A stretch of DNA of 64,000 nucleotides from a virus. The stretch lies in IMG/VR virus record IMGVR_UViG_3300032116_000065, positions 1 through 64,000 of that record; one strand, written 5' to 3'. Of the stretch, positions 37 to 43,385 are shown piece after piece (within the stretch, counting starts at the first letter, position 1; every line of letters starts with the position of its first letter). Both the position numbers and the translations under genes were made by a program. A model generated the notes under the pieces. The model was not told the origin of the DNA and made no database searches. It saw only the letters and a program-made list of their open reading frames with translations.

Positions 37-113
37 TGGTGGGACCACTTGGACTTGAACCAAGAATCAACAAATTATGAGTTTGCTGCATTAACCAATT
101 ATGCTATAGTCCC
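37..113 (-). tRNA. tRNA-Met (CAT)
   Basis: Complete cloverleaf on the minus strand. The acceptor stem GGGACTA pairs with TGGTCCC with one G-U pair, the T-loop is TTCAAGT, and the anticodon loop CTCATAA gives CAT. The discriminator is A and CCA is encoded. The anticodon arm resembles elongator tRNA-Met, though a lysidine-modified Ile2 (CAT) cannot be excluded. It is the last tRNA of the leftward array and is cut off from the others by two protein genes. Confidence 0.9.
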
Positions 114-118
114 TCGTT

Positions 119-769
119 CTATAATTCCACCCAATGTCTGTCTTGAGGCTCAAACTTTGTTTCATAAGAAATCGGAAAACTGATGCTGAGACGTTTTGAC
201 AAACTAATTGCACGATGATATACTTTCATAGGAATAAAGATGGCATCTCCTGGAGACATGACAACTTCAATCAGGGGGCTTTCTTCTAGATGCTCTGCGT
301 TTTTTTCTTTTACGTCACAACCCCAGATTTGGAATCTAGAGGAACCCTCAATCTGTACAATCAGATTATGCGAATTATCCCAATGTATGCCAAAACCCCT
401 GGATAAATCTTCAGCAACTGTAAAGTAAATGTGCGCATCAACGCAAGAATTAGTAAAAGTAGATTCGAGTTCTTTACAAATAGAGTTGACCTTTTTGTTC
501 ACTCTTGATGCATCAATTATGGAGCATAAATTTGTTCTCAACTCTCTTTCTAAGAGAGTTGGTGGATATGTATTGACATCCGTCAACCAACCTTGATTGT
601 TCCACGAATATTCTTCTTTGTTTATAAATTTGAGGCGTTGATGATTTACAAATGGTCTCAAATTTAATAAGTTTTCTAACTCTCGCCAAGAAAAGATATT
701 TGGAAAAGCATTGATGAAGTGACTTGGTTGCAGTTTTTCAATCTCACTTTTTACTTTAGATGCAATCAT
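119..769 (-). CDS. JmjC/cupin-like 2-oxoglutarate Fe(II) dioxygenase
   Basis: A 216-residue protein with a double-stranded beta-helix oxygenase signature: HWD at residues 129-131 supplies the first two iron ligands, and H185 in VYHRAIS the third. A GDAIFIP strand before it is typical of JmjC-like cupins (cupin_8 type). Members of this group hydroxylate proteins, including ribosomal proteins, or tRNA bases. The start codon overlaps the stop of the upstream oxygenase gene as ATGA, so the two are probably translationally coupled. Both lie between tRNA genes and share their transcript. The fold assignment rests on motifs only, and the substrate is unknown. A role on tRNA or the ribosome is a guess from the location. 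Confidence 0.75.
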   Translation of the reverse strand: MIASKVKSEIEKLQPSHFINAFPNIFSWRELENLLNLRPFVNHQRLKFINKEEYSWNNQGWLTDVNTYPPTLLERELRTNLCSIIDASRVNKKVNSICKELESTFTNSCVDAHIYFTVAEDLSRGFGIHWDNSHNLIVQIEGSSRFQIWGCDVKEKNAEHLEESPLIEVVMSPGDAIFIPMKVYHRAISLSKRLSISFPISYETKFEPQDRHWVEL

Positions 770-1338
770 ACTTGTTTTATATTAAACGATATCGATATTC
801 GAGTCAAGTCGCCATCAGATGGAAGAACATCATGAGATGTCCATGAAGGGAATATCATCATCATTCCATTAACAGGTTTATAAAAAATAGCATGATGAAA
901 AAAGTTATTCTTTTCGGACAATTTTAATGGATAATGTTTTTGTAAAAACAAGTCATCAAAAAAGCGAATGTTTCCAGTGTTCTCGTCTGTTTGAATGTAT
1001 ATCACACCTGAGAATGCACTTGATGGGTGCACATGTTTCTCGTTGTAATCACCACGTTGATTAATGTTGATCCAAATATTGTCTAGTTCTAAGCGAAGTC
1101 CATCTTCTATTTCTTTTGCAATTTTATCACATCGATGTTCTATCTCAGACTTTATGGTGCCAAAACTTTTTAAGTCTTGCACGTTTAAATCTCGACTTTG
1201 CCATCCACCACGATTTGTAAAAATTCTATTTGGATAGTTGTTATTTTTTAATTCTAAACACTCGTTTGCAATATCACTACAATTGATGTTGAGATGATCG
1301 ATCCATATAGGTGTAAAAAACCAATTCTCTCTTTTCAT
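766..1338 (-). CDS. 2OG-Fe(II) oxygenase of the TIGR02466 type
   Basis: 190 residues from an ATG preceded by GAGGT. A longer reading frame extends to 1569, but that part overlaps two tRNA genes, so the 1338 start is preferred. The C-terminal half carries the TIGR02466 hallmarks: KHVHP (H102, H104), the strand SGVIYIQ, a late histidine H169 in SWTSHDV, and R180 in TRISISFN that would bind 2-oxoglutarate. These non-haem iron enzymes are common in aquatic T4-like phages and their substrates are generally unknown. The gene follows tRNA-Cys by 12 bases and overlaps the next oxygenase gene by four. Confidence 0.85.
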   Translation of the reverse strand: MKRENWFFTPIWIDHLNINCSDIANECLELKNNNYPNRIFTNRGGWQSRDLNVQDLKSFGTIKSEIEHRCDKIAKEIEDGLRLELDNIWININQRGDYNEKHVHPSSAFSGVIYIQTDENTGNIRFFDDLFLQKHYPLKLSEKNNFFHHAIFYKPVNGMMMIFPSWTSHDVLPSDGDLTRISISFNIKQV

Positions 1339-1350
1339 AAGCACCTCAAA

Positions 1351-1425
1351 TGGAGTTGCGGACTGGACTCGCACCAGCATAAAAGAGTTTTGCAGACTCT
1401 TGCATAACTTTTCTGCCACCGCAAC
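1351..1425 (-). tRNA. tRNA-Cys (GCA)
   Basis: Acceptor GTTGCGG pairs perfectly with CCGCAAC. The anticodon arm AGAGT/ACTCT holds loop CTGCAAA (anticodon GCA). The 3' end is TCCA, so U is the discriminator and CCA is encoded. It sits two bases from the next tRNA. Confidence 0.93.
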
Positions 1426-1426
1426 G

Positions 1427-1502
1427 TGGTAGCAACGGTTGGACTCGAACCAACGATAAACTCCGTATGAAGGAGGTGCATTAGCCACTATGCTACGTTG
1501 CC
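1427..1502 (-). tRNA. tRNA-Met (CAT)
   Basis: Acceptor GGCAACG pairs with CGTTGCT with a G-U at the first pair. The T-loop is TTCGAGT, the anticodon loop TTCATAC gives CAT, the discriminator is A and CCA is encoded. The first pair of the anticodon stem is mismatched. This is the second CAT tRNA of the array. It may be a distinct Met isoacceptor or an Ile2 (CAT) tRNA. Confidence 0.85.
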
Positions 1503-1595
1503 ATTGGCGGAAGGCAGTGTAATCGAAACACATTCCCGAGGGAACCATCTGTTTAGCAAACAGCGACAAATCCTCTCTGCTTTACCTTCCTAAAC

Positions 1596-1672
1596 TGGCG
1601 ACTCGGATGGGACTTGAACCCACGACCTCATGCGTGACAGGCATGTGAACTAACCAACTGTTCTACCGAGCC
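1596..1672 (-). tRNA. tRNA-Asp (GTC)
   Basis: Acceptor GGCTCGG pairs with CCGAGTC. The anticodon loop CTGTCAC gives GTC. The T-loop is TTCAAGT. The discriminator is G and CCA is encoded. Confidence 0.93.
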
Positions 1673-1677
1673 ATGAT

Positions 1678-1754
1678 TGGTGGGACAAGATGGATTCGAA
1701 CCATCGACCTCAGTCTTATCAGGACTGTGCGCTAACCAACTGTGCCATTGTCCC
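1678..1754 (-). tRNA. tRNA-Ile (GAT)
   Basis: Acceptor GGGACAA pairs with TTGTCCC. The anticodon stem CAGTC/GACTG closes loop CTGATAA (anticodon GAT). The T-loop is canonical TTCGAAT and CCA is encoded. It lies five bases from tRNA-Asp. Confidence 0.94.
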
Positions 1755-1763
1755 GAAATAAAA

Positions 1764-1849
1764 TGGTGGGAAAGGAAGGAATCGAACCTACTCAGCCGAT
1801 GGCGCCAGATTTACAGTCTGGTGTGACTCTCCAACTTCACCGCTTGCCC
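1764..1849 (-). tRNA. tRNA-Tyr (GTA), long variable arm
   Basis: 86-base type II tRNA with an extended variable arm. The anticodon stem CCAGA/TCTGG closes loop CTGTAAA (anticodon GTA). The T-loop is TTCGATT and CCA is encoded. The acceptor stem GGGCAAG/CTTTCCC has one internal C-U mismatch. Confidence 0.92.
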
Positions 1850-1858
1850 ACATAAACT

Positions 1859-1932
1859 TGGCTGAGGAGCATGGATTCGAACCACGATAAGCAGGATCAA
1901 AACCTGCTGTCCTGCCGTTAGACGACTCCTCA
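1859..1932 (-). tRNA. tRNA-Gln (TTG)
   Basis: Acceptor TGAGGAG pairs with CTCCTCA. The anticodon stem GCAGG/CCTGC closes loop TTTTGAT (anticodon TTG). The T-loop is TTCGAAT, the discriminator G, and CCA is encoded. Confidence 0.93.
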
Positions 1933-2277
1933 ATAAAAAGTGCAGGATGAGATAACTGGGTTTGCTCGTTCTAGGCATCCGATGGAGGCAACACATTACT
2001 GCTTGCCACATCCTGCGAAAAAGTTGCTTCTCCCTGCTGGTGGTCACTTTTCATCCACTTCACAACACAGGGAGATTCTCGTATTGCCAACGACCGTTCG
2101 GTTGGACGGCAGATTTCTCTGGGCATCATTGACTCATCTGCGTTGCCGCAGTAAGGTGTTGCCAAACCACCCATGCTTGTCACAGCATTTCTTTATCGTC
2201 TGGGTCAGACTAGCCACTAACAATGGCGCGACAAGATAGCCGAAGCGTACATTGCTGCAGAGGCTTCGGGCATATTT
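1933..2277 (-). other. Structured non-coding spacer inside the tRNA array
   Basis: A 345-base interval with no convincing gene. It holds several perfect inverted repeats: an 8-bp pair GCAGGATG/CATCCTGC closing 1942-2016, TCTCCCTG/CAGGGAGA closing 2029-2075, GCAGAT/ATCTGC closing 2109-2141, and CCGAAGC/GCTTCGG closing 2240-2269. No T-loop (GTTCRA) sequence occurs, so no ordinary tRNA is hidden here. The transcript from the array promoter would cross it. It could contain one or more small structured RNAs or decayed tRNA genes. Confidence 0.5.
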
Positions 2278-2352
2278 TGGTGGAGGATGAGAGAATCGAA
2301 CTCTCAACTCTGCGATGCAAACGCAGCGTGTTCCCATTAGCACTAATCCCCC
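2278..2352 (-). tRNA. tRNA-Ala (TGC)
   Basis: Acceptor GGGGGAT pairs with ATCCTCC with one G-U. The anticodon stem CTGCG/CGCAG closes loop TTTGCAT (anticodon TGC). The T-loop is TTCGATT and CCA is encoded. Confidence 0.93.
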
Positions 2353-2513
2353 AAATAAGGTGTGGGCTACCATTCAAGGTTTGTCTTAATCCTTACCCCC
2401 ACACAGCAAGGCTGCAATCCGTTCTGCCTCATAATTCAATCAGTGCTACCGAAACGGATAAGCCCTTACACTGATAGGATGAACCCGACAGATGCATCTG
2501 CAGGTCACCAAGA
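2353..2513 (-). other. Second structured spacer in the tRNA array
   Basis: 161 bases without a tRNA or credible ORF. On the minus strand GTGTGGG pairs with CCCACAC around an inner AAGG/CCTT stem (about 2360-2405), TCAGTG pairs with CACTGA further upstream (about 2440-2476), and CAGATGCATCTG (2489-2500) is a 12-base perfect palindrome. It may be a processed spacer or an unrecognised small RNA. Confidence 0.4.
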
Positions 2514-2588
2514 TGGCTGGCGTGGTAGGGATCGAACCTACGACAGAGTGATTAACAGTCACTTGATCTACCGCTGATCTACACGCCA
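2514..2588 (-). tRNA. tRNA-Asn (GTT)
   Basis: Acceptor TGGCGTG pairs with CACGCCA. The anticodon stem AGTGA/TCACT closes loop CTGTTAA (anticodon GTT). The T-loop is TTCGATC. The discriminator is G and CCA is encoded. Confidence 0.94.
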
Positions 2589-2598
2589 AAAACTAAAC

Positions 2599-2672
2599 TG
2601 GCTTCCCGATACGGACTCGAACCGCAACCAAGAGTTTTGGAGACTCGTATGCTTCCATTACACCATCGGGAA
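2599..2672 (-). tRNA. tRNA-Trp (CCA)
   Basis: Acceptor TTCCCGA pairs with TCGGGAA. The anticodon loop CTCCAAA gives anticodon CCA. The T-loop is TTCGAGT, the discriminator is G and a 3' CCA is encoded. Confidence 0.93.
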
Positions 2673-2674
2673 AT

Positions 2675-2750
2675 TGGTGGGTCTAGCAGGACTCGAACCT
2701 GCATCAAACTGGTTAAGAGCCAGATATAATCACCGTTATACGATAGACCC
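2675..2750 (-). tRNA. tRNA-Lys (CTT)
   Basis: Acceptor GGGTCTA pairs with TAGACCC. Loop CTCTTAA gives anticodon CTT. The outer pair of the anticodon stem is a mismatch. The T-loop TTCGAGT is canonical and CCA is encoded. It directly precedes a second, highly divergent tRNA-Lys. Confidence 0.87.
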
Positions 2751-2757
2751 AAACGTA

Positions 2758-2831
2758 TGGTAGGGCTGGAGGGTAACGCTCCCTCTTTTACGGATTAAAA
2801 GTCCGTTACATCACTTTAATGTTTCAACCCC
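2758..2831 (-). tRNA. tRNA-Lys (TTT) with non-canonical D- and T-loops
   Basis: All four stems pair: acceptor GGGGTTG/CAGCCCT (with two G-U), D-stem ACAT/ATGT, anticodon stem ACGGA/TCCGT around CTTTTAA (anticodon TTT), and T-stem GAGGG/CCCTC. CCA is encoded. The D-loop is TAAAGTG without the usual GG pair, and the T-loop is AGCGTTA instead of TTCRANT. The usual D-loop/T-loop tertiary contact therefore cannot form. It could be a functional tRNA with a reduced elbow, a decoy, or a decaying gene. The intact stems and CCA argue against simple decay. Confidence 0.7.
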
Positions 2832-2853
2832 AAAAAATCATAACAAAGTAATC

Positions 2854-2928
2854 TGGTGAACCCAAGGGAATTCGAATCCCTATTCCATCCGTGAAAGGGA
2901 TGTGTCCTAACCGTTAGACGATGGGTCC
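2854..2928 (-). tRNA. tRNA-Glu (TTC)
   Basis: Acceptor GGACCCA pairs with TGGGTTC. The anticodon stem CATCC/GGATG closes loop CTTTCAC (anticodon TTC). The T-loop is TTCGAAT and CCA is encoded. Confidence 0.93.
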
Positions 2929-2934
2929 AAAAAT

Positions 2935-3009
2935 TGGTGCCTTCAGAGAGATTTGAACTCCCAACCTACTGATTACAAATCAGTTGCACTACCGTTGTGC
3001 TATGAAGGC
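2935..3009 (-). tRNA. tRNA-Thr (TGT)
   Basis: Acceptor GCCTTCA pairs with TGAAGGC. The anticodon stem ACTGA/TCAGT closes loop TTTGTAA (anticodon TGT). The T-loop is TTCAAAT and CCA is encoded. It is the promoter-proximal gene of the array. Confidence 0.94.
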
Positions 3010-10929: not shown

Positions 10930-10951
10930 ATGGGGGGCGAAAGCCCCCCAT
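10930..10951. terminator. Bidirectional rho-independent terminator
   Basis: Stem ATGGGGGGC/GCCCCCCAT (10930-10938 with 10943-10951) closes a GAAA loop. On the minus strand it is followed by seven Ts, ending the porin/PstS transcript. On the plus strand it follows the small rightward operon with a weaker pyrimidine tract. Confidence 0.9.
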
Positions 10952-10974: not shown

Positions 10975-12012
10975 TTAGAATGTGTAGACAAGGTCGACCA
11001 TGAGTCGCTTGTAGTCTACTTTGCTGGCACCAACTTCAACATCGAAGTAAGATCCACGAACAGCCCAGCCATCGGCTAGACCATAAGCAGCGCGAAGTGC
11101 TGTGCCGTCATGAAGAACTGCTTCACCACCAAAGTCACTATCTGTCCATAAGGCTGATAGTGCGTTGGCTTCTGCGTCTTGCTTCATTAGGCTGACTTCC
11201 CAATCACCTGCTTTCTTAACGCCGCCAAGACGGACGCCATAAGCAAGTGCTGTGTCTGCTTTCTTTGCTTCATCATTCTTCAATTGCTGAACAAATAGTT
11301 TTACAGGAATACCAGCAACTTCTTTTGCTGCTGATGCTGTAAGAACTAATTGCTTATGCTTTTCAGTTGAACTACAAACTGGAAGTGATGGAACTGATGC
11401 TCCACCAGCAACAGAAAGAGGATATACGATATAGCATAAAGATGCTTTAGTATTCACTTCCTGATCCAATAGTGCTGCGTGTGCAGCAACATCAAGACCA
11501 GCAACTTTCTTTGCTACGCCAACTTGTAAACCAACAAGTGTGCTATCCTTATCTGCAGCATTTTCAACCAACTTGAGTTTGAATGCTGTAGCAGATAGAC
11601 CACCATCATTTTTCAGCGCAACTGCAAGACCTTCAGGCTTGATGTCACCATCAAACATAAGACCTTCAGTAACCCATGGCTGATTCATTTTGCCAAGTGT
11701 TACTTTTACATTATCTGCAGCCGCATATTCAACATACGCCAAATTAAGATCAACGGTCTTTAACGAACCGCCAGCCATGTCATTCCATGATGACTTTGCT
11801 GAACCAGTGCGAACGCCAACAACAACTTTTGTTTTGTCATTGACATCTGCCTTGGCAACAAGACCAACGCGAAAACGATCACGATCTGAATTGGTGTTGC
11901 CAATTTCTAAACTATCACTACGATAGCCAAAATCGCCACTCCACTTTACATCGGCTGCTTGCGCAACTGACATTGATCCCAAAATAACAGATGCTAGAAT
12001 TGCTTTGTACAT
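10975..12012 (-). CDS. Outer-membrane porin
   Basis: 345 residues with a typical signal peptide (cleavage after AQA, about residue 19) and an all-beta body of alternating hydrophobic strands and glycine/aspartate turns. The last residues, DLVYTF, end in phenylalanine, the outer-membrane barrel-assembly signal. The fold resembles the bacterial 'putative porin' family (Porin_5 type). AAGGAG lies ahead of the ATG. It follows the pstS-like gene by 28 bases on the same transcript, and a terminator comes right after it. The likely job is to raise passage of phosphate or other small solutes across the host outer membrane. A two-cysteine insert near residue 193-212 (CYIVYPL, PVCSS) may be an external loop. 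Confidence 0.8.
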   Translation of the reverse strand: MYKAILASVILGSMSVAQAADVKWSGDFGYRSDSLEIGNTNSDRDRFRVGLVAKADVNDKTKVVVGVRTGSAKSSWNDMAGGSLKTVDLNLAYVEYAAADNVKVTLGKMNQPWVTEGLMFDGDIKPEGLAVALKNDGGLSATAFKLKLVENAADKDSTLVGLQVGVAKKVAGLDVAAHAALLDQEVNTKASLCYIVYPLSVAGGASVPSLPVCSSTEKHKQLVLTASAAKEVAGIPVKLFVQQLKNDEAKKADTALAYGVRLGGVKKAGDWEVSLMKQDAEANALSALWTDSDFGGEAVLHDGTALRAAYGLADGWAVRGSYFDVEVGASKVDYKRLMVDLVYTF

Positions 12013-12040
12013 ATTATAACTCCTTGTCTACACCGCGAAA

Positions 12041-13039
12041 TTACGGCTTAAAGTTTTTCATGACTTTAACATCATTTCTTGTTTGAGCAAGATCTGATTT
12101 ATCAAGAGAAACTAAACCACGGTCTGAAAGATAACCTTCCTCGCCAATGGCTTTGTCACTCACGTACTCATTCACGAATTCTTTGATACCAGGAATTGCA
12201 CCAATGTGCTGCTTCTTGACATAAATGAATAGTGGACGAGCCGCAGTATATTTAGACGCCGAGATTGTTTCGAAAGACGGTACAATCCCGTCGATTTTCA
12301 AGCCTTTTAGTTTATCTGTGTTCTCTTCCAAGAAAGAATAACCAAAAATACCAAGAGCATTCTTATTTGTTGCAAGTTTTTGAGCAATCAAATTATCATT
12401 CTCACCTGCTTCAGCATAAGCACCATCTTCACGAATTGCGTGACATGCCTTTTTGTTTTCAAGAGCACATCCTTCTTCCATGAATAACTCTAGGAAACTA
12501 TCACGTGTTCCAGAAGTTGGTGGTGGACCAAGCACTTCAATCTTGATTGCTGGTAAAGAAGCATCAACATCTTTCCATGTTTTATTTGGATTCGCAATCA
12601 TTTGACCAGATGCGTTTGGAATTGTTTTAGCAAGAGCGACATAGACTTGCTTCTTTGTCAATGCAGATAATGCACCTGCTTTGCTTTCTGCGATAACAAT
12701 TCCATCAAAGCCAATCTTGACTTCTAGAATTTCTGTCACGCCATTCTTTGCGCATGTTTCAACTTCAGACTTCTTCATTGCGCGTGATGCATTTACAACA
12801 TCAGGATGCTGCGGACCAATACCTGCGCAGAACATTTTGATTCCACCACCAGTGCCAGTTGACTCGACCTTTGGTGTTTTGAACTTACCACCACGACCGA
12901 ACTGTTCAGCAACAGCAGTAGTGAATGGGTATACAGTTGAAGATCCTACGATTGCGATCTGATCTCTTGATTGCGCATTCGCAACATGAGATGCAACAAT
13001 AAGACCAAGAGCGAATAGAACAGCGAGTTTAGATTTCAT
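12041..13039 (-). CDS. pstS: Phosphate ABC transporter substrate-binding protein PstS
   Basis: 332 residues with a signal peptide (cleavage after VANA, about residue 22). Phosphate-binding signatures are present: IVGSSTVYPF near the N-terminus, ESTGTGGGIKMFC, and PPTSGTRDSF in the middle. PstS binds periplasmic phosphate and delivers it to the host PstCAB transporter. It is a well-known auxiliary gene of aquatic phages. AGGAG precedes the ATG. It is co-transcribed with the downstream porin. No clear Pho box was found upstream, so host PhoB control is not shown. Confidence 0.92.
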   Translation of the reverse strand: MKSKLAVLFALGLIVASHVANAQSRDQIAIVGSSTVYPFTTAVAEQFGRGGKFKTPKVESTGTGGGIKMFCAGIGPQHPDVVNASRAMKKSEVETCAKNGVTEILEVKIGFDGIVIAESKAGALSALTKKQVYVALAKTIPNASGQMIANPNKTWKDVDASLPAIKIEVLGPPPTSGTRDSFLELFMEEGCALENKKACHAIREDGAYAEAGENDNLIAQKLATNKNALGIFGYSFLEENTDKLKGLKIDGIVPSFETISASKYTAARPLFIYVKKQHIGAIPGIKEFVNEYVSDKAIGEEGYLSDRGLVSLDKSDLAQTRNDVKVMKNFKP

Positions 13040-13080
13040 AGACTGACTCCTTTGAATTGGAATCAGTATATAGAGACGGA

Positions 13081-17578: not shown

Positions 17579-19465
17579 TTAAATCTCGCATGCACCAGCG
17601 GTACACGCAAGTTCCTTTGCTGAAGTTGTAGTATCTGTTTCTTCCATAAACTCCACCCAGTTGATGTCAACGTTTTGGAGCGCAAGAAGTTCAGTGTACT
17701 TCGCTTCATCAATTTCTTCATAAGGTGCTTGACGATAAGAACCATTGTCTCGTGGCAAGAATGAAACTCCAGAGAGAATTGAGATATTCTTATAGACCCA
17801 TGCACCAACTTCCATCCATTCATCATCACCAACGTATACAGTGATTGATGGCTTGTGTTCACACCAGTGATCCTGGTAGATTTTCCAAAGTTCCAACTGC
17901 TCAATGGCAGTCATGTCATTGCGAGTGACGGAGTTCTTTGGAGCCTTCATTGGGAAACTGAATACCCAGTTTGACTTGCTGTAGAAATCTTCTTCAGCTT
18001 TGTATCCCTTGTCAATCATAAACTGAGCAAGCGGATCCTTCATGTCTGCTCTTACACGGCGAATGTAAAACTGAGCATAACGTGGGTGAATGCCTGATGC
18101 GGAATCCACCAATTGAGAAACAGTGCCTGAAGGTTTAACGCAAGTGATTGCAGCCGACTGTGGAACACCAAGAGCCTCGGCGAGTTCTTTATTCGTTTCA
18201 ACACACTGTAAGCGAATTTCATCAAGAGCATCTGCCAGTTTTTGAGACGGCTTATTTAGAAGTTTGTGATCGCAAATACCAGTCAATGAAACACCAAGTA
18301 GTCTTTCCTCATCACAATTATTCTTCCATTTCTTATTAATGTAACGGAAGTCTGTTAACGTTGACTGCAATGTACCAATGATTGTTGCAAGACGAGCCTT
18401 ACGCTTCAATGACTCAACGTCATCGTTTGCACGGACGACAATCTCTGAAAGATTACAGAACTCAAATGGACGCAAGATAATTTCAGAGCAAGGATTTGTA
18501 CCGAACTCATGCTTTGGATCGCGGCGACCATTCTTCATTGCAACTGCTTGTGAAGCAGCGCGAGAGAAAATGCCACGCTCACCAGACTTGGACATATAGA
18601 GAGCATGCCATTCATTCATGAATGTGTCCATGTCTACTTGTTTGTCATACACCGCTGAAATGTTTGCCAATGCGCGCTGCCCATTGTGCGCCCACCAGTC
18701 ACCTGACTTTGCATGACGCAATTGGTCGTCGTTGAGGTCGGTAAGAGAAATGAGAGCAGAACGGCGAACACCACCGCAAACAACAATATCAGCAATCTTG
18801 CAAACAATGTCATGACACTCCAACGTTGATAGTTTCCTACCACGTGCCTTTTGGAAAATATTTAATGTGAACTTGATGAGATCTACAAGTGGCTCTGGAC
18901 CAGATGCGCGACCACCAAATGTCTTGAGTCGCTCACCTGCTGGACGCACCTTTGATACATCCCACTTTGCAATCTTTCCAGAATACAAAAGCGAAATGAT
19001 CTCACGATATGCTGAAGCCCAACCAATTTTACTATCAGCAACGACAACAGTCGTATCTGTTTCGTGTAGTTCTTCTGGAACTTCTGGAAGTTTGTTTGTA
19101 TACTTTGATTCAACAGAAAATCCAACACCTGTTCCGCACATAAGAATATACATGATCTCGTCGAATGCTTTGACATTATCAATGGCGACATAGGAGCAAT
19201 TATATCCAGCCACTTGATCCTTTTCTAGAGCAGGACCAGCAGTCATCAAGCAACGCATTGATGGCATGACTTCCAAATTTAAAATTGCTGAACGCAACTC
19301 ATCCCATGGAACTAATTTGTTTTCGTTTGTGCGATTCTTAAAAAAATTGATATAACGATCTACAGTCTCATCCCATGTTTCGCGGCGACCAAGTTCGTCA
19401 TTGAAACGAGCATAACGTGAAATGTGAATGAAATCTTGATAAATGGACGGAAGTCTTGTCGCCAT
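17579..19465 (-). CDS. nrdJ: Class II (adenosylcobalamin-dependent) ribonucleotide reductase
   Basis: 628 residues, complete. Active-site loop NPCSEI at residues 324-329 (thiyl radical C326), second loop cysteine C337 in FCNLSE, first redox cysteine C90 in GYNCSY, and a C-terminal redox pair at C621/C626 (CTAGAC). The length and the lack of an NrdB partner fit the monomeric RTPR-like class II enzymes, which reduce ribonucleoside triphosphates using vitamin B12. No intein or intron interrupts it. It is followed by the lipoprotein gene and preceded by thyX, in one nucleotide-metabolism operon with the primase. Confidence 0.94.
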   Translation of the reverse strand: MATRLPSIYQDFIHISRYARFNDELGRRETWDETVDRYINFFKNRTNENKLVPWDELRSAILNLEVMPSMRCLMTAGPALEKDQVAGYNCSYVAIDNVKAFDEIMYILMCGTGVGFSVESKYTNKLPEVPEELHETDTTVVVADSKIGWASAYREIISLLYSGKIAKWDVSKVRPAGERLKTFGGRASGPEPLVDLIKFTLNIFQKARGRKLSTLECHDIVCKIADIVVCGGVRRSALISLTDLNDDQLRHAKSGDWWAHNGQRALANISAVYDKQVDMDTFMNEWHALYMSKSGERGIFSRAASQAVAMKNGRRDPKHEFGTNPCSEIILRPFEFCNLSEIVVRANDDVESLKRKARLATIIGTLQSTLTDFRYINKKWKNNCDEERLLGVSLTGICDHKLLNKPSQKLADALDEIRLQCVETNKELAEALGVPQSAAITCVKPSGTVSQLVDSASGIHPRYAQFYIRRVRADMKDPLAQFMIDKGYKAEEDFYSKSNWVFSFPMKAPKNSVTRNDMTAIEQLELWKIYQDHWCEHKPSITVYVGDDEWMEVGAWVYKNISILSGVSFLPRDNGSYRQAPYEEIDEAKYTELLALQNVDINWVEFMEETDTTTSAKELACTAGACEI

Positions 19466-19478
19466 TATGTGCTCCTTA

Positions 19479-20141
19479 TTATTCTGTTGCGATAAATTGT
19501 GTTGAAAGAGGGAATACCTCAGCGATAACCTTTGCGCACTCTTTGGCTATTTCCATATGCTCTTTCTGAGTGCCGTTGCCGCTTCGGAGTTGTATATAGT
19601 GAATCCATGAACGCAAGGATCCGCTCATATACATTCTGGACATAATTAATCCTTCTGGGAGCAATGCGCGTGCTTGTTCCTTTGCAATACCATTCGCAAT
19701 TGCCCAGTTATAATGAATCTTGACTTGTTCAATCAAGTCTTGTTGACGTTTATCCCATTCGTATTGAAGCATAACATCAACGCCTTCAGAGATAGAGTTT
19801 TGACGATTCTTCGGATCCTGAAGTCTTGCTTCACGTGTTACAAATTCTAGATCCTTGGTTGGATCAGCATAACGTTGTGAAAATTCTTGAAAAGAAAAAC
19901 TACGATGACGTAGAATTTGGCGTGCAATGTCACGTGTTGTTTCAATTTCTAAACACATGGTTGCCATTTCTAATGGTGACCAATGCTGATGCTTGACCAA
20001 ATACTTGATCAACTTTTCTGATGTTTCAGAATTAATTTGATTAGAGGGATTGGACACTCTTGCGCAGAAAGCCACAAGGTCCGTTGGTGTGTCCAATCCC
20101 TCGAGAACTGGTTTACTGTATGATACTAATTTAACGTTCAT
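19479..20141 (-). CDS. thyX: Flavin-dependent thymidylate synthase ThyX
   Basis: 220 residues. The ThyX signature RHRSFSFQEFSQRY spans residues 78-91. It converts dUMP to dTMP using FAD, NADPH and methylene-tetrahydrofolate. The ATG overlaps the upstream stop by four bases, and nrdJ follows 13 bases on, so the reductase and the thymidylate synthase are made together. Confidence 0.95.
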   Translation of the reverse strand: MNVKLVSYSKPVLEGLDTPTDLVAFCARVSNPSNQINSETSEKLIKYLVKHQHWSPLEMATMCLEIETTRDIARQILRHRSFSFQEFSQRYADPTKDLEFVTREARLQDPKNRQNSISEGVDVMLQYEWDKRQQDLIEQVKIHYNWAIANGIAKEQARALLPEGLIMSRMYMSGSLRSWIHYIQLRSGNGTQKEHMEIAKECAKVIAEVFPLSTQFIATE

Positions 20142-31331: not shown

Positions 31332-32936
31332 TTACGAAGAAATTGTACTAATTAGGACAAATTTTCCATTACCACCATACGTTGAATTTACAACGCTGTA
31401 AGAAGCTCCAGTGCCACCTATTCCTGCATTTGCGCATCTAGAGTCTGTATTATTGCCAGGATTAAATTGATATCCAGTATATAGTGTGGTTTGGCTGGTA
31501 TATGTTGGATGTGCATAACCGCTTCCTCCGCCACCTCCACCAATTATGTCCCCAGAATTTTGCCCTGCACCTCCACCATAATAACCAGATCCACCTCCTC
31601 CAGAAACTAATGCATCGTTAGGTGCAGCACTAGTGCCATATCCTCCAGTTAATGCACCTCCTGGCGTGTCAAATGAATTAGGATTCGGAAGATATCCACC
31701 TGCATTTTGTGTTCCGCCAGTGCCTGCGTATACTGATGTATTACTGCCGTTCCAAGTGCCGTTTTCTCCATTTGCGCCACCACCAGCACCACCAACGCAT
31801 ATTACACTTGGTCCACTATTTCTATGGAGACCTGCTCCTCCACCACCACCTGCAATTAAAACTGAATTTGCATGTGTTTCAGTTCCTCTAAATATACCAG
31901 TGTATGCTCCACCACCACCACAACCCCAATTACCATCATCAGTAATTGCTCCACCACCACCAGCAACACCACCACCGAAAAGCACAGTCGCTTGATTTGC
32001 GCCTCGACCACCTTCTCCAACTCTAATCGTATATGATACACCACTAGTTAGAGTTACTAATCCTTTCGCGCAGCCACCACCACCGCCTCTCATATTTCTA
32101 TGAGGAACTGTTGAACTGTCTCCACTTCCTGTTGCTCCTCCGCCACCAGCACCCCACATAATAATATTTGCTGTTAAATCGCTAGAAGTGCTTATTGTCC
32201 AAGTTCCATTTGATGTTAATGTCAATTCGCCATCTATAGATGGATCCCAGGTTGATTTCCCGTTTACTGATGGTGTGATGGAAAATGAAAGATTTCCACT
32301 TGATGCGTTTATACTAAATGCTTTGGATGATTTTTGTAATTCTAAATCTGTTGCAGTTACTGTGAAGTTATAAGTTGTTTCCACTCCAGGTGGTGATGTA
32401 AGAGTTCCACTGAGCAATCCATTCGCAGCAAGTGATAGTCCTGATGGTAGTGAGCTGCCGTCTTGTAGTGCATAACTCACTGTTGAGTCGCTCGTGGCAA
32501 CTAATGATCGTGATAGTGCACTTGACGCACCCCAAGAAGTCAATGGTGATTCAGTTACCCAAACAGGTCCTGCCGACACTACCATTCCAGGAACCACAAC
32601 TGCTGTTCCACCGTCTGGATTGACGACGTATAGTGGATAGGTTGTTCCAGTAGAAAGTGCTGGTGTTGTAAATGAGAGTGATGTTGAGTTTGTTCTTGAC
32701 ACGGAAGGAACAGCAGCACCGTTCACATAAATCTGCACACCAGCATCGAATCCTGTTCCTGTAAGAACAATCGATTCGTTGCCTGTATTTACAGTTGCTG
32801 TTGCGCTGTTTGGATAAGTGATTGTTGTGACTTTCGGACCACCACCAGCAGAAATCTGAGACACGACAGTTGTTGTCAACTGTGTTGTTGTAATCGTGTT
32901 TGCTGTGATATAACTACCGTCTAATTTGCGTGCCAT
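31332..32936 (-). CDS. Modular adhesin: leader, IPT/TIG, Ig-like, glycine-rich
   Basis: 534 residues. Order: shared leader (residues 1-30, ANTITTTQL), IPT/TIG domain (about 34-120), putative Ig/He_PIG domain (about 140-225, LPSGLSLAANGLLSG), and a glycine-rich domain to the end. Glycine-rich domains of this look form the receptor-binding face of gp38-like adhesins in T4-like phages. One of a family of paralogues in this window that mix the same parts. Confidence 0.78.
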   Translation of the reverse strand: MARKLDGSYITANTITTTQLTTTVVSQISAGGGPKVTTITYPNSATATVNTGNESIVLTGTGFDAGVQIYVNGAAVPSVSRTNSTSLSFTTPALSTGTTYPLYVVNPDGGTAVVVPGMVVSAGPVWVTESPLTSWGASSALSRSLVATSDSTVSYALQDGSSLPSGLSLAANGLLSGTLTSPPGVETTYNFTVTATDLELQKSSKAFSINASSGNLSFSITPSVNGKSTWDPSIDGELTLTSNGTWTISTSSDLTANIIMWGAGGGGATGSGDSSTVPHRNMRGGGGGCAKGLVTLTSGVSYTIRVGEGGRGANQATVLFGGGVAGGGGAITDDGNWGCGGGGAYTGIFRGTETHANSVLIAGGGGGAGLHRNSGPSVICVGGAGGGANGENGTWNGSNTSVYAGTGGTQNAGGYLPNPNSFDTPGGALTGGYGTSAAPNDALVSGGGGSGYYGGGAGQNSGDIIGGGGGGSGYAHPTYTSQTTLYTGYQFNPGNNTDSRCANAGIGGTGASYSVVNSTYGGNGKFVLISTISS

Positions 32937-41759: not shown

Positions 41760-43385
41760 TTACGGATTAAATTTTAAAATTACAATACCAGAAGACCCTC
41801 TACCTGCGGGATTTCCACCGCCGCCACCGCCACCAAGATTGTCAATTGCATTATTTCCTGCTGTTGTTGGTGCTGCTGGTCCTGCTCCACCATCTCCACC
41901 ACCTGATGGTCCTCCTATTGCTCTCGGTAGAGCACCTGTGTGTCCACCACCACCACCACCAAAGTACACATTGTACAATGTGCCACCTGCAATAAATGGA
42001 CAAATAATGCCAATTCCACCATTACCTGTTGCAGTTGGTGTTGCTGGGCTTGTGCTACCACCCACAGCGCCAGCGCCACCGCCTCCACCACCAGGATTTG
42101 GTCCACCAGTCGCATTGCCACCATTGTTTCCTTGTGATGGATAAACTGACGGAATATTTCCAGATCCTGCACTGGCTGTTGGTCCACCTGCTGTTCTTCC
42201 ACCGCCGCTTCCACCTGAACCACCTTGACCACGAGCATCGTTTGGAGTTCCTCCAGGTTGTCCAGGTGTTCCACCAGCACCACCGCCAGCAGAGGTAATA
42301 GTCCCAAATACACTATTTGTACCACTTGCACCTGAACCAGTGTCATATGGTGTTGCTGGATATCCTCCAGCTCCGCCAGCACCAATAGTAATTGTATAAG
42401 CATTGCCAGCAGTTAGTGGGTAATTAGAACCGAATCTAACACCACCAGCACCGCCACCACCGCCATACCAACCGCCTCCACCGCCGCCAGCAACAACAAA
42501 ATAATCGCAACTTGTGATACCAGTCGGACCAATAAATGAACTTGTGTTTACAAAAGCAACAACGCCTGTTCTTGACATAGAATATCTGAGAATAACAGTT
42601 CCAGAACCACCAGAACCACCAGCTGAACCACCATTCGGACCATACCCACCGCCGCCTCCGCCTCCGCCAAAGTTGGCAGTACCAGAACCACCTGGATATC
42701 CTGCTCCACCGCCAGGAGAAATTCCACCTTGACTTCCTGCGTTTGGATCTAGTGGAGTTCCGCCACCACCAGCACCATATCCACGCGCAGTACCAGTGAT
42801 TGATGACATTGCATTTTGTCCATTCGGACCGCCAGCACCACCACCACGACCTGTGCCTGGTGTTGCACTATATCCTTGTGCTGGACTATAAACGTTTGGT
42901 AGATTTCCTAATCCAGCAGGTGCGCCGCCAGAACCACCATTTTGTGGACCAGGTGCACCTGCGCCTCCACCATCTGTTTGTATTCCACCAGGAGTTGCAG
43001 GTGAGATACCAAAAAATGATGATGATCCAATGCTCCCGCCTCCACCACCCGCACCAATTGTAATAGTGTACAGATTATTTGCTGTAACTGCGTATCCAGA
43101 CCCTACTCTAAATCCACCACCGCCAGCACCAAATCCTGGGTTAAGATATGCACCTGCGCCACCACCACCACCGCCAGCAAGAACTAGATACTCGACAGTA
43201 GTAACACCATCTGGGCAACGCCACACAGATGATGAATTAAAATTTTGCACTACAGTTATTGCAGTAGAATCTGTGATGTATCCATATGTGCGAAAGAATG
43301 TGATATCATCAAGTGACCAAATACCTGCAACGTTTGCTGCAGTGGAACTAGCAATTCTTCTTGCGCCAATAAAACGTGTTGTCAT
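41760..43385 (-). CDS. Two-unit glycine-rich adhesin
   Basis: 541 residues. N-terminal anchor MTTRFIGARRIASSTAANVA, then two glycine-rich units opening with VWRCPDGVTTVEYLVLAGGG and FIGPTGITSCDYFVVAGGGG. Paralogous to 32949, 54513 and 56828, but with its own proline/glycine loop content. Confidence 0.78.
   Translation of the reverse strand: MTTRFIGARRIASSTAANVAGIWSLDDITFFRTYGYITDSTAITVVQNFNSSSVWRCPDGVTTVEYLVLAGGGGGGAGAYLNPGFGAGGGGFRVGSGYAVTANNLYTITIGAGGGGGSIGSSSFFGISPATPGGIQTDGGGAGAPGPQNGGSGGAPAGLGNLPNVYSPAQGYSATPGTGRGGGAGGPNGQNAMSSITGTARGYGAGGGGTPLDPNAGSQGGISPGGGAGYPGGSGTANFGGGGGGGGYGPNGGSAGGSGGSGTVILRYSMSRTGVVAFVNTSSFIGPTGITSCDYFVVAGGGGGGWYGGGGGAGGVRFGSNYPLTAGNAYTITIGAGGAGGYPATPYDTGSGASGTNSVFGTITSAGGGAGGTPGQPGGTPNDARGQGGSGGSGGGRTAGGPTASAGSGNIPSVYPSQGNNGGNATGGPNPGGGGGGAGAVGGSTSPATPTATGNGGIGIICPFIAGGTLYNVYFGGGGGGHTGALPRAIGGPSGGGDGGAGPAAPTTAGNNAIDNLGGGGGGGNPAGRGSSGIVILKFNP

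What the first reader, a model, noticed from the sequence alone, without database searches (positions are those of the whole stretch)
10975..13039. Phage-encoded outer-membrane porin paired with PstS
PstS is a known phage auxiliary gene. Here it is followed on the same transcript by a full-length porin with signal peptide and C-terminal phenylalanine. Together they would increase phosphate passage through the outer membrane and its capture in the periplasm. The porin could also change receptors available to other phages.
Basis: partly seen in the sequence, partly recalled or inferred. Interest (0 to 1): 0.65.

Follow-up and report, generated by a model that had tools for sequence, protein, structure and literature searches.

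The report
Phage-borne phosphate-starvation porin with PstS
This aquatic bacterial virus carries two genes taken from a bacterial phosphate-uptake operon, a phosphate-catching protein and the outer-membrane channel that goes with it, which probably help infected cells gather the phosphate needed to make new viruses.

Summary
On the minus strand, pstS (12041-13039) is followed after 28 nt by a 345-aa porin (10975-12012) with signal peptide, predicted 16 strands and C-terminal Phe, then a strong terminator. In IMG/VR, 24 of 27 phage contigs with this porin have pstS directly upstream. Its nearest bacterial relatives lie inside pst operons (pstS-porin-pstC-pstA-pstB), in Pho islands with phoB, phoR, phoU, plcP and a glycosyltransferase. 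All 9 true bacterial members of its clade are pst-linked, and the phage porins form one clade within it. More distant Pseudomonas homologues often have Pho boxes, and a PF16930 porin there is published as PhoBR-dependent (PMC5082522). Both phage genes are under purifying selection. The best reading is a phage auxiliary cassette that moves phosphate, or small P compounds, across the outer membrane to PstS. Phosphate selectivity is not shown, and receptor effects are untested. Some relatives extend the cassette with PlcP (lipid-phosphate salvage), and one adds an Agt-like glycosyltransferase. A viral porin beside a nutrient transporter has precedent (glnK-amtB-ompL); I found no report of one for phosphate. 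I rate it a new variant of a known kind.

The parts
12041..13039 (-). pstS-like periplasmic phosphate-binding protein, 332 aa
   Evidence: PBP_like_2 E=3e-46; phmmer to PDB 9jwy, a phosphate-binding protein, E=1.7e-88
12974..13039 (-). pstS signal peptide (MKSKLAVLFALGLIVASHVANA / QSRD)
   Evidence: sequence inspection
10975..12012 (-). porin, 345 aa, Porin_5 family, predicted 16-strand barrel, C-terminal Phe
   Evidence: PF16930 E=1.5e-13; AlphaFold2 pLDDT 81; homologues in 27 phage contigs
11956..12012 (-). porin signal peptide (MYKAILASVILGSMSVAQA / AD)
   Evidence: sequence inspection
12013..12040 (-). 28-nt intergenic gap with porin Shine-Dalgarno AAGGAG at 12025-12020
   Evidence: sequence; no terminator-like site inside it
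10930..10951 (-). intrinsic terminator after the porin, shared with the converging + strand genes
   Evidence: 9-pair GC stem with T tail on the minus strand
13059..13073 (-). conserved element CTATATACTGATTCC 20-34 nt upstream of pstS, promoter-like
   Evidence: near-identical copy upstream of pstS in L004, L005, L006, L007, L017, L114; the 11-mer core occurs once in the window

Best explanation
The pair is a phosphate-acquisition auxiliary cassette captured from a proteobacterial pst operon of the form pstS-porin-pstCAB. During infection both proteins are exported. The porin forms a 16-strand pore that lets phosphate, or small phosphorus compounds, cross the outer membrane. Phage PstS binds phosphate in the periplasm and passes it to the host's PstCAB inner-membrane transporter, since no pstC, pstA or pstB was seen beside it. 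Shown here: homology, gene order, shared ancestry with pst-operon porins, purifying selection. Inferred: co-transcription, export, channel activity, substrate and benefit to the phage.
For: pstS-porin adjacency in 24 of 27 phage contigs, in several different genomic contexts. Bacterial homologues were found by porin sequence alone, yet 36 of 71 lie within 8 kb of pst/pho genes and 25 within 500 bp of pstS, including inside pstS-porin-pstC-pstA-pstB (L039, Pfam). Tree: the phage porins form one clade inside a set whose bacterial members are all pst-linked, support 99. Pho boxes with at most 3 mismatches lie upstream of 27 of 43 unlinked bacterial porins against 3.7% background. A PF16930 porin is induced by phosphate starvation and lost in a phoBR mutant of Pseudomonas putida BIRD-1 (PMC5082522). 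dN/dS 0.10-0.20 in nearly all pairs. In relatives the same cassette gains plcP, and in one also an agt-like gene, both phosphate-starvation functions.
Against: No measurement of channel activity or selectivity exists for this clade. The closest solved fold is OmpM1, a porin not known for phosphate. No Pho box was found upstream of phage pstS, so expression need not follow phosphate stress. Three phage contigs carry the porin without pstS (L120, L123, L124; all fragments). More distant phage pstS genes (48-59% identity) lack the porin.
Confidence: 0.76

Rival explanations
1. The porin belongs to the phosphate-starvation response but passes organic phosphorus, pyrophosphate or polyphosphate rather than orthophosphate, with PstS receiving phosphate released in the periplasm.
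For: Pho regulation and pst linkage show context, not substrate. Relatives pair the porin with plcP without pstS (L123, L124). OprO, a pyrophosphate porin, shows that Pho porins can differ in substrate (own knowledge).
Against: Direct adjacency to pstS inside pst operons points to orthophosphate.
Confidence: 0.3
2. The porin is an outer-membrane change that alters receptors and blocks other phages; its place beside pstS is an inherited accident.
For: Window and L001 share porins at 91% identity but pstS at 72-73%, with a sharp break at the gene junction, so porins are swapped between phages. The predicted loop L5 varies, with a 25-aa insertion in the window.
Against: Pst/Pho linkage of the whole bacterial clade. 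Predicted extracellular loops are not generally hypervariable: L2, L3 and L7 are as conserved as the strands.
Confidence: 0.12
3. Bacterial contamination or a functionless passenger gene.
For: No match in 50,697 deposited phage records. One public 'phage' record with pstS is in fact a bacterial pst operon.
Against: Flanking genes are phage genes in many independent contigs. The phage porins are monophyletic and under purifying selection.
Confidence: 0.03

Closest known systems
Porin_5 (PF16930) porins of pst operons in Gammaproteobacteria, e.g. L039 9764-11086
   Same: Same family, same position after pstS, nested in the same clade
   Different: Bacterial operons go on with pstCAB; the phage keeps only pstS and a porin about 100 aa shorter
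Pseudomonas PF16930 porin PPUBIRD1_1354 / PFLU4536 (PMC5082522)
   Same: Same Pfam family; phosphate-starvation induced and PhoBR-dependent
   Different: The Pseudomonas homologues found here are not next to pst genes and are only 25-29% identical; I could not fetch PPUBIRD1_1354 itself to align it
Viral glnK-amtB-ompL cassettes (PMC8115048)
   Same: A viral nutrient-uptake gene set with a porin directly downstream, taken from a bacterial neighbourhood
   Different: Nitrogen, Bacteroidetes-derived, a different porin, and an inner-membrane channel instead of a binding protein
Cyanophage and pelagiphage pstS auxiliary genes (e.g. Pelagibacter phage Mosig)
   Same: Phage pstS, 49% identical in Mosig; Mosig also has a PlcP-like gene next to it
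   Different: No porin annotated beside Mosig pstS
OprP/OprO phosphate and pyrophosphate porins (PF07396)
   Same: 16-strand Pho-regulated porins used in phosphate starvation (own knowledge)
   Different: PF07396 below its cut-off, no profile match in PDB, not among the 50 best fold matches

Membership tests
Porin_5 (PF16930) | Pfam score above the curated cut-off | tested here: met
   50.6 bits against 22
Porin_5 (PF16930) | 16-strand outer-membrane barrel with signal peptide and C-terminal aromatic residue | tested here: met
   AlphaFold2 model with 16 strands, pLDDT 81; Phe invariant; prediction only
OprP/OprO (Porin_O_P, PF07396) | Pfam score above the curated cut-off | tested here: not met
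   14.8 bits against 20.9
OprP/OprO (Porin_O_P, PF07396) | phosphate-selective binding pore (arginine ladder) | not testable with these tools
   R31, R44, R46, R48 are conserved but also in Porin_5 members outside the pst-linked clade, so not diagnostic
Pst-operon porin lineage | groups with porins encoded inside or beside pst operons | tested here: met
   Tree, linkage
PstS | PBP_like_2 domain with phosphate-binding motifs and signal peptide | tested here: met
   E=3e-46; GSSTVYPF, TGTGGG and TSGTRD motifs seen in the sequence
PstS | NCBIfam TIGR02136 (ptsS_2) curated cut-off | tested here: not met
   160.2 bits against 206.6, E=6.4e-47; that one subfamily model is not reached although homology is clear
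PstS | binds phosphate | not testable with these tools
   needs a binding assay
Phage auxiliary metabolic gene | lies in a phage genome between phage genes, of cellular origin | tested here: met
Phage auxiliary metabolic gene | alters host metabolism during infection | not testable with these tools
   no cultured phage with this gene found

The most novel reading that the evidence does not exclude
Some aquatic phages carry a coordinated phosphate-starvation kit acting on both membranes: an outer-membrane Pho porin, PstS, and in some relatives PlcP with (in L127) an Agt-type glycosyltransferase that would strip phosphate from membrane phospholipids and replace them with glycolipids, so that one phage opens uptake and also mines the host's own membrane for phosphate.
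Probability: 0.35. Interest if true: 0.82.

Novelty: new variant of a known kind. Interest (0 to 1): 0.62.

Why it matters
Phage phosphate genes known so far act in the periplasm or cytoplasm. A captured outer-membrane channel would mean the phage also treats the outer membrane as a bottleneck. The same data make a clear prediction about a poorly studied bacterial family: PF16930 porins are phosphate-starvation porins across several phyla, a role usually credited to OprP or PhoE. The PlcP and Agt genes in relatives point to phage-driven membrane lipid remodelling, for which I found no report.

Tried and rejected
OprP/OprO kinship: tested by Pfam, PDB profile search and fold search, not supported. 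A Pho box upstream of phage pstS: none above chance. Pho boxes upstream of bacterial pstS: clear only in L049, with weaker sites in L043 and L050. T4-type late promoter TATAAATA: only two copies in the window, neither near pstS. plcP elsewhere in this virus record: not found, but the record may be incomplete. Acinetobacter phage MD-2021a as a phage parallel: rejected, it is a bacterial pst operon. L033 as a bacterial member: treated as a likely mis-binned phage contig, not proven. Literature: ten full-text searches found no phage porin-PstS pair and no phage PlcP-Agt report; subscription papers are not covered.

Full report
Observation. On the minus strand of the window, pstS (12041-13039) is followed by a porin gene (10975-12012) with 28 nt between them. 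Each has a signal peptide and a Shine-Dalgarno. A strong terminator sits right after the porin (10930-10951) and none lies between the genes, so a single transcript is likely but not shown. The window is part of a 101-kb virus record with tail-fibre and baseplate genes.

Identity. PstS matches PBP_like_2 (E=3e-46) and a solved phosphate-binding protein, 9jwy (E=1.7e-88); it falls short of the curated cut-off of the one NCBIfam subfamily model it hits. The porin matches Porin_5, PF16930, above its cut-off and PF07396 (OprP/OprO) below it. AlphaFold2 predicts a signal helix and 16 strands, pLDDT 81, pTM 0.75. The best solved fold is OmpM1 of Veillonella (TM about 0.7, 19% identity), then general 16-strand porins. 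A profile search of PDB sequences found nothing. So it is a 16-strand porin by prediction but not an OprP relative by these tests.

Distribution in phages. No deposited phage genome matches the porin, but 27 IMG/VR contigs do. In 24 the porin directly follows pstS. Exceptions are L120, L123 and L124 (porin without pstS; these are fragments). Among pstS relatives at 65% identity or more, only L008 has something else downstream, a 91-aa ORF weakly like a phage outer-membrane protein (22.2 bits against a cut-off of 27). More distant phage pstS genes (L021-L030) lack the porin. The pair sits in several different neighbourhoods (beside DNA polymerase and Hsp20 genes in L001, L020 and L127; beside other genes in the window, L009 and L115), so it is kept or moved together. 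dN/dS is 0.10-0.20 for the porin in all pairs with enough divergence (0.41 in one near-identical pair) and 0.05-0.18 for pstS. Window and L001 are about 72% identical in pstS DNA and jump to over 90% at the porin start, so the porin can also be exchanged on its own.

Bacterial origin. A search with the porin profile alone returned bacterial homologues at 25-35% identity. Of 71 that could be scored, 36 lie within 8 kb of pst or pho genes and 25 within 500 bp of pstS, across Gammaproteobacteria, Omnitrophota, Auribacterota and Verrucomicrobiota. In L039 Pfam confirms the order: a response regulator (PhoB-like), PhoR, metallophosphoesterase, unknown gene, glycosyltransferase, pstS, porin, pstC, pstA, pstB; a BLAST match to PhoU lies in between. 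In the tree the phage porins form one clade (with L033, a 3-kb contig binned as Actinomycetota and probably phage) inside a 31-row group whose bacterial members are all pst-linked, support 99. This is a quick tree with SH-aLRT only, and the root is for drawing.

Regulation. The unlinked bacterial homologues are mostly Pseudomonas. Of 43, 27 have a Pho box with at most 3 mismatches near the porin start, against 3.7% of random stretches of the same loci; these species are related, so the counts are not independent. Published proteomics reports a PF16930 porin among the most abundant exoproteins of phosphate-starved Pseudomonas putida BIRD-1, absent in a phoBR mutant (PMC5082522). I could not align that protein directly. 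In the phages no Pho box was found; instead CTATATACTGAYTC is conserved upstream of pstS in the window and six relatives, function unknown.

Pore. Basic residues R31, R44, R46 and R48 are conserved through most of the family, and loop L3 carries invariant acids D121 and D123, as in general porins. K103 and R336 are largely specific to the phage and pst-operon clade. This suits anion passage but does not show phosphate selectivity.

Extended cassette. Eight phage loci held whole (L001, L013, L014, L016, L019, L020, L125, L127) carry pstS, porin and a metallophosphoesterase; L015 and L018 carry plcP-pstS and end before a porin could be seen; L123 and L124 carry plcP, a family-2 glycosyltransferase and the porin. 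The enzyme is far below the LpxH cut-off (44 bits against 134) and 48-49% identical to the single match in each of three Pseudomonas genomes. In P. citronellolis that match is followed by a glycosyltransferase, the PlcP-Agt arrangement described in PMC8528852. In L127 the phage order is pstS-porin-plcP-glycosyltransferase, and that glycosyltransferase is 38% identical to the P. citronellolis one. The window record shows no plcP.

Conclusion. The window carries the short form of a phage phosphate-starvation cassette derived from a bacterial pst operon. What is shown is ancestry, linkage and selection. Transport, selectivity, expression and any benefit to the phage remain inferences. A viral porin beside a nutrient transporter has precedent in glnK-amtB-ompL (PMC8115048), so this is a new variant of a known kind.

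Noticed in passing
L127 8932-13101: A 188-kb phage record encodes pstS, porin, a PlcP-like phospholipase and an Agt-like glycosyltransferase in a row: a possible phage membrane-lipid-remodelling pathway.
   Followed up: partly
L131 (Pelagibacter phage Mosig): A gene annotated UDP-2,3-diacylglucosamine hydrolase lies next to pstS, on the opposite strand; it may be PlcP, not LpxH. Its sequence was not compared here.
   Followed up: no
L008 3229-3504: pstS is followed by a 91-aa ORF weakly like Phage_OMP (PF24653, below cut-off) in place of the porin.
   Followed up: no
L130 (CAKLQF020000007.1): A record named Acinetobacter phage MD-2021a carries a bacterial pstSCAB operon and other metabolic genes; it looks like mislabelled bacterial sequence.
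   Followed up: partly
L033: A 3-kb contig binned as Actinomycetota groups with phage porins; its pstS reads as two overlapping frames.
   Followed up: no
window 13059-13073: Conserved CTATATACTGAYTC element upstream of pstS in the window and six related phages; it may be a phage promoter.
   Followed up: partly
L055-L112 upstream of porins: Pho-box-like sites upstream of PF16930 porins, mostly in Pseudomonas, suggesting a family-wide Pho regulon role.
   Followed up: yes
window 17579-20141: A ribonucleotide reductase with a match to the B12-dependent insertion domain lies beside a ThyX-type thymidylate synthase.
   Followed up: no
window 31332-32936 and 41760-43385: Phage proteins with glycine-rich domains (ALK_LTK_GRD, Gly_rich_2), probably fibre or adhesin tips.
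   Followed up: no
window 37-3009: Cluster of 13 tRNA genes on the minus strand.
   Followed up: no
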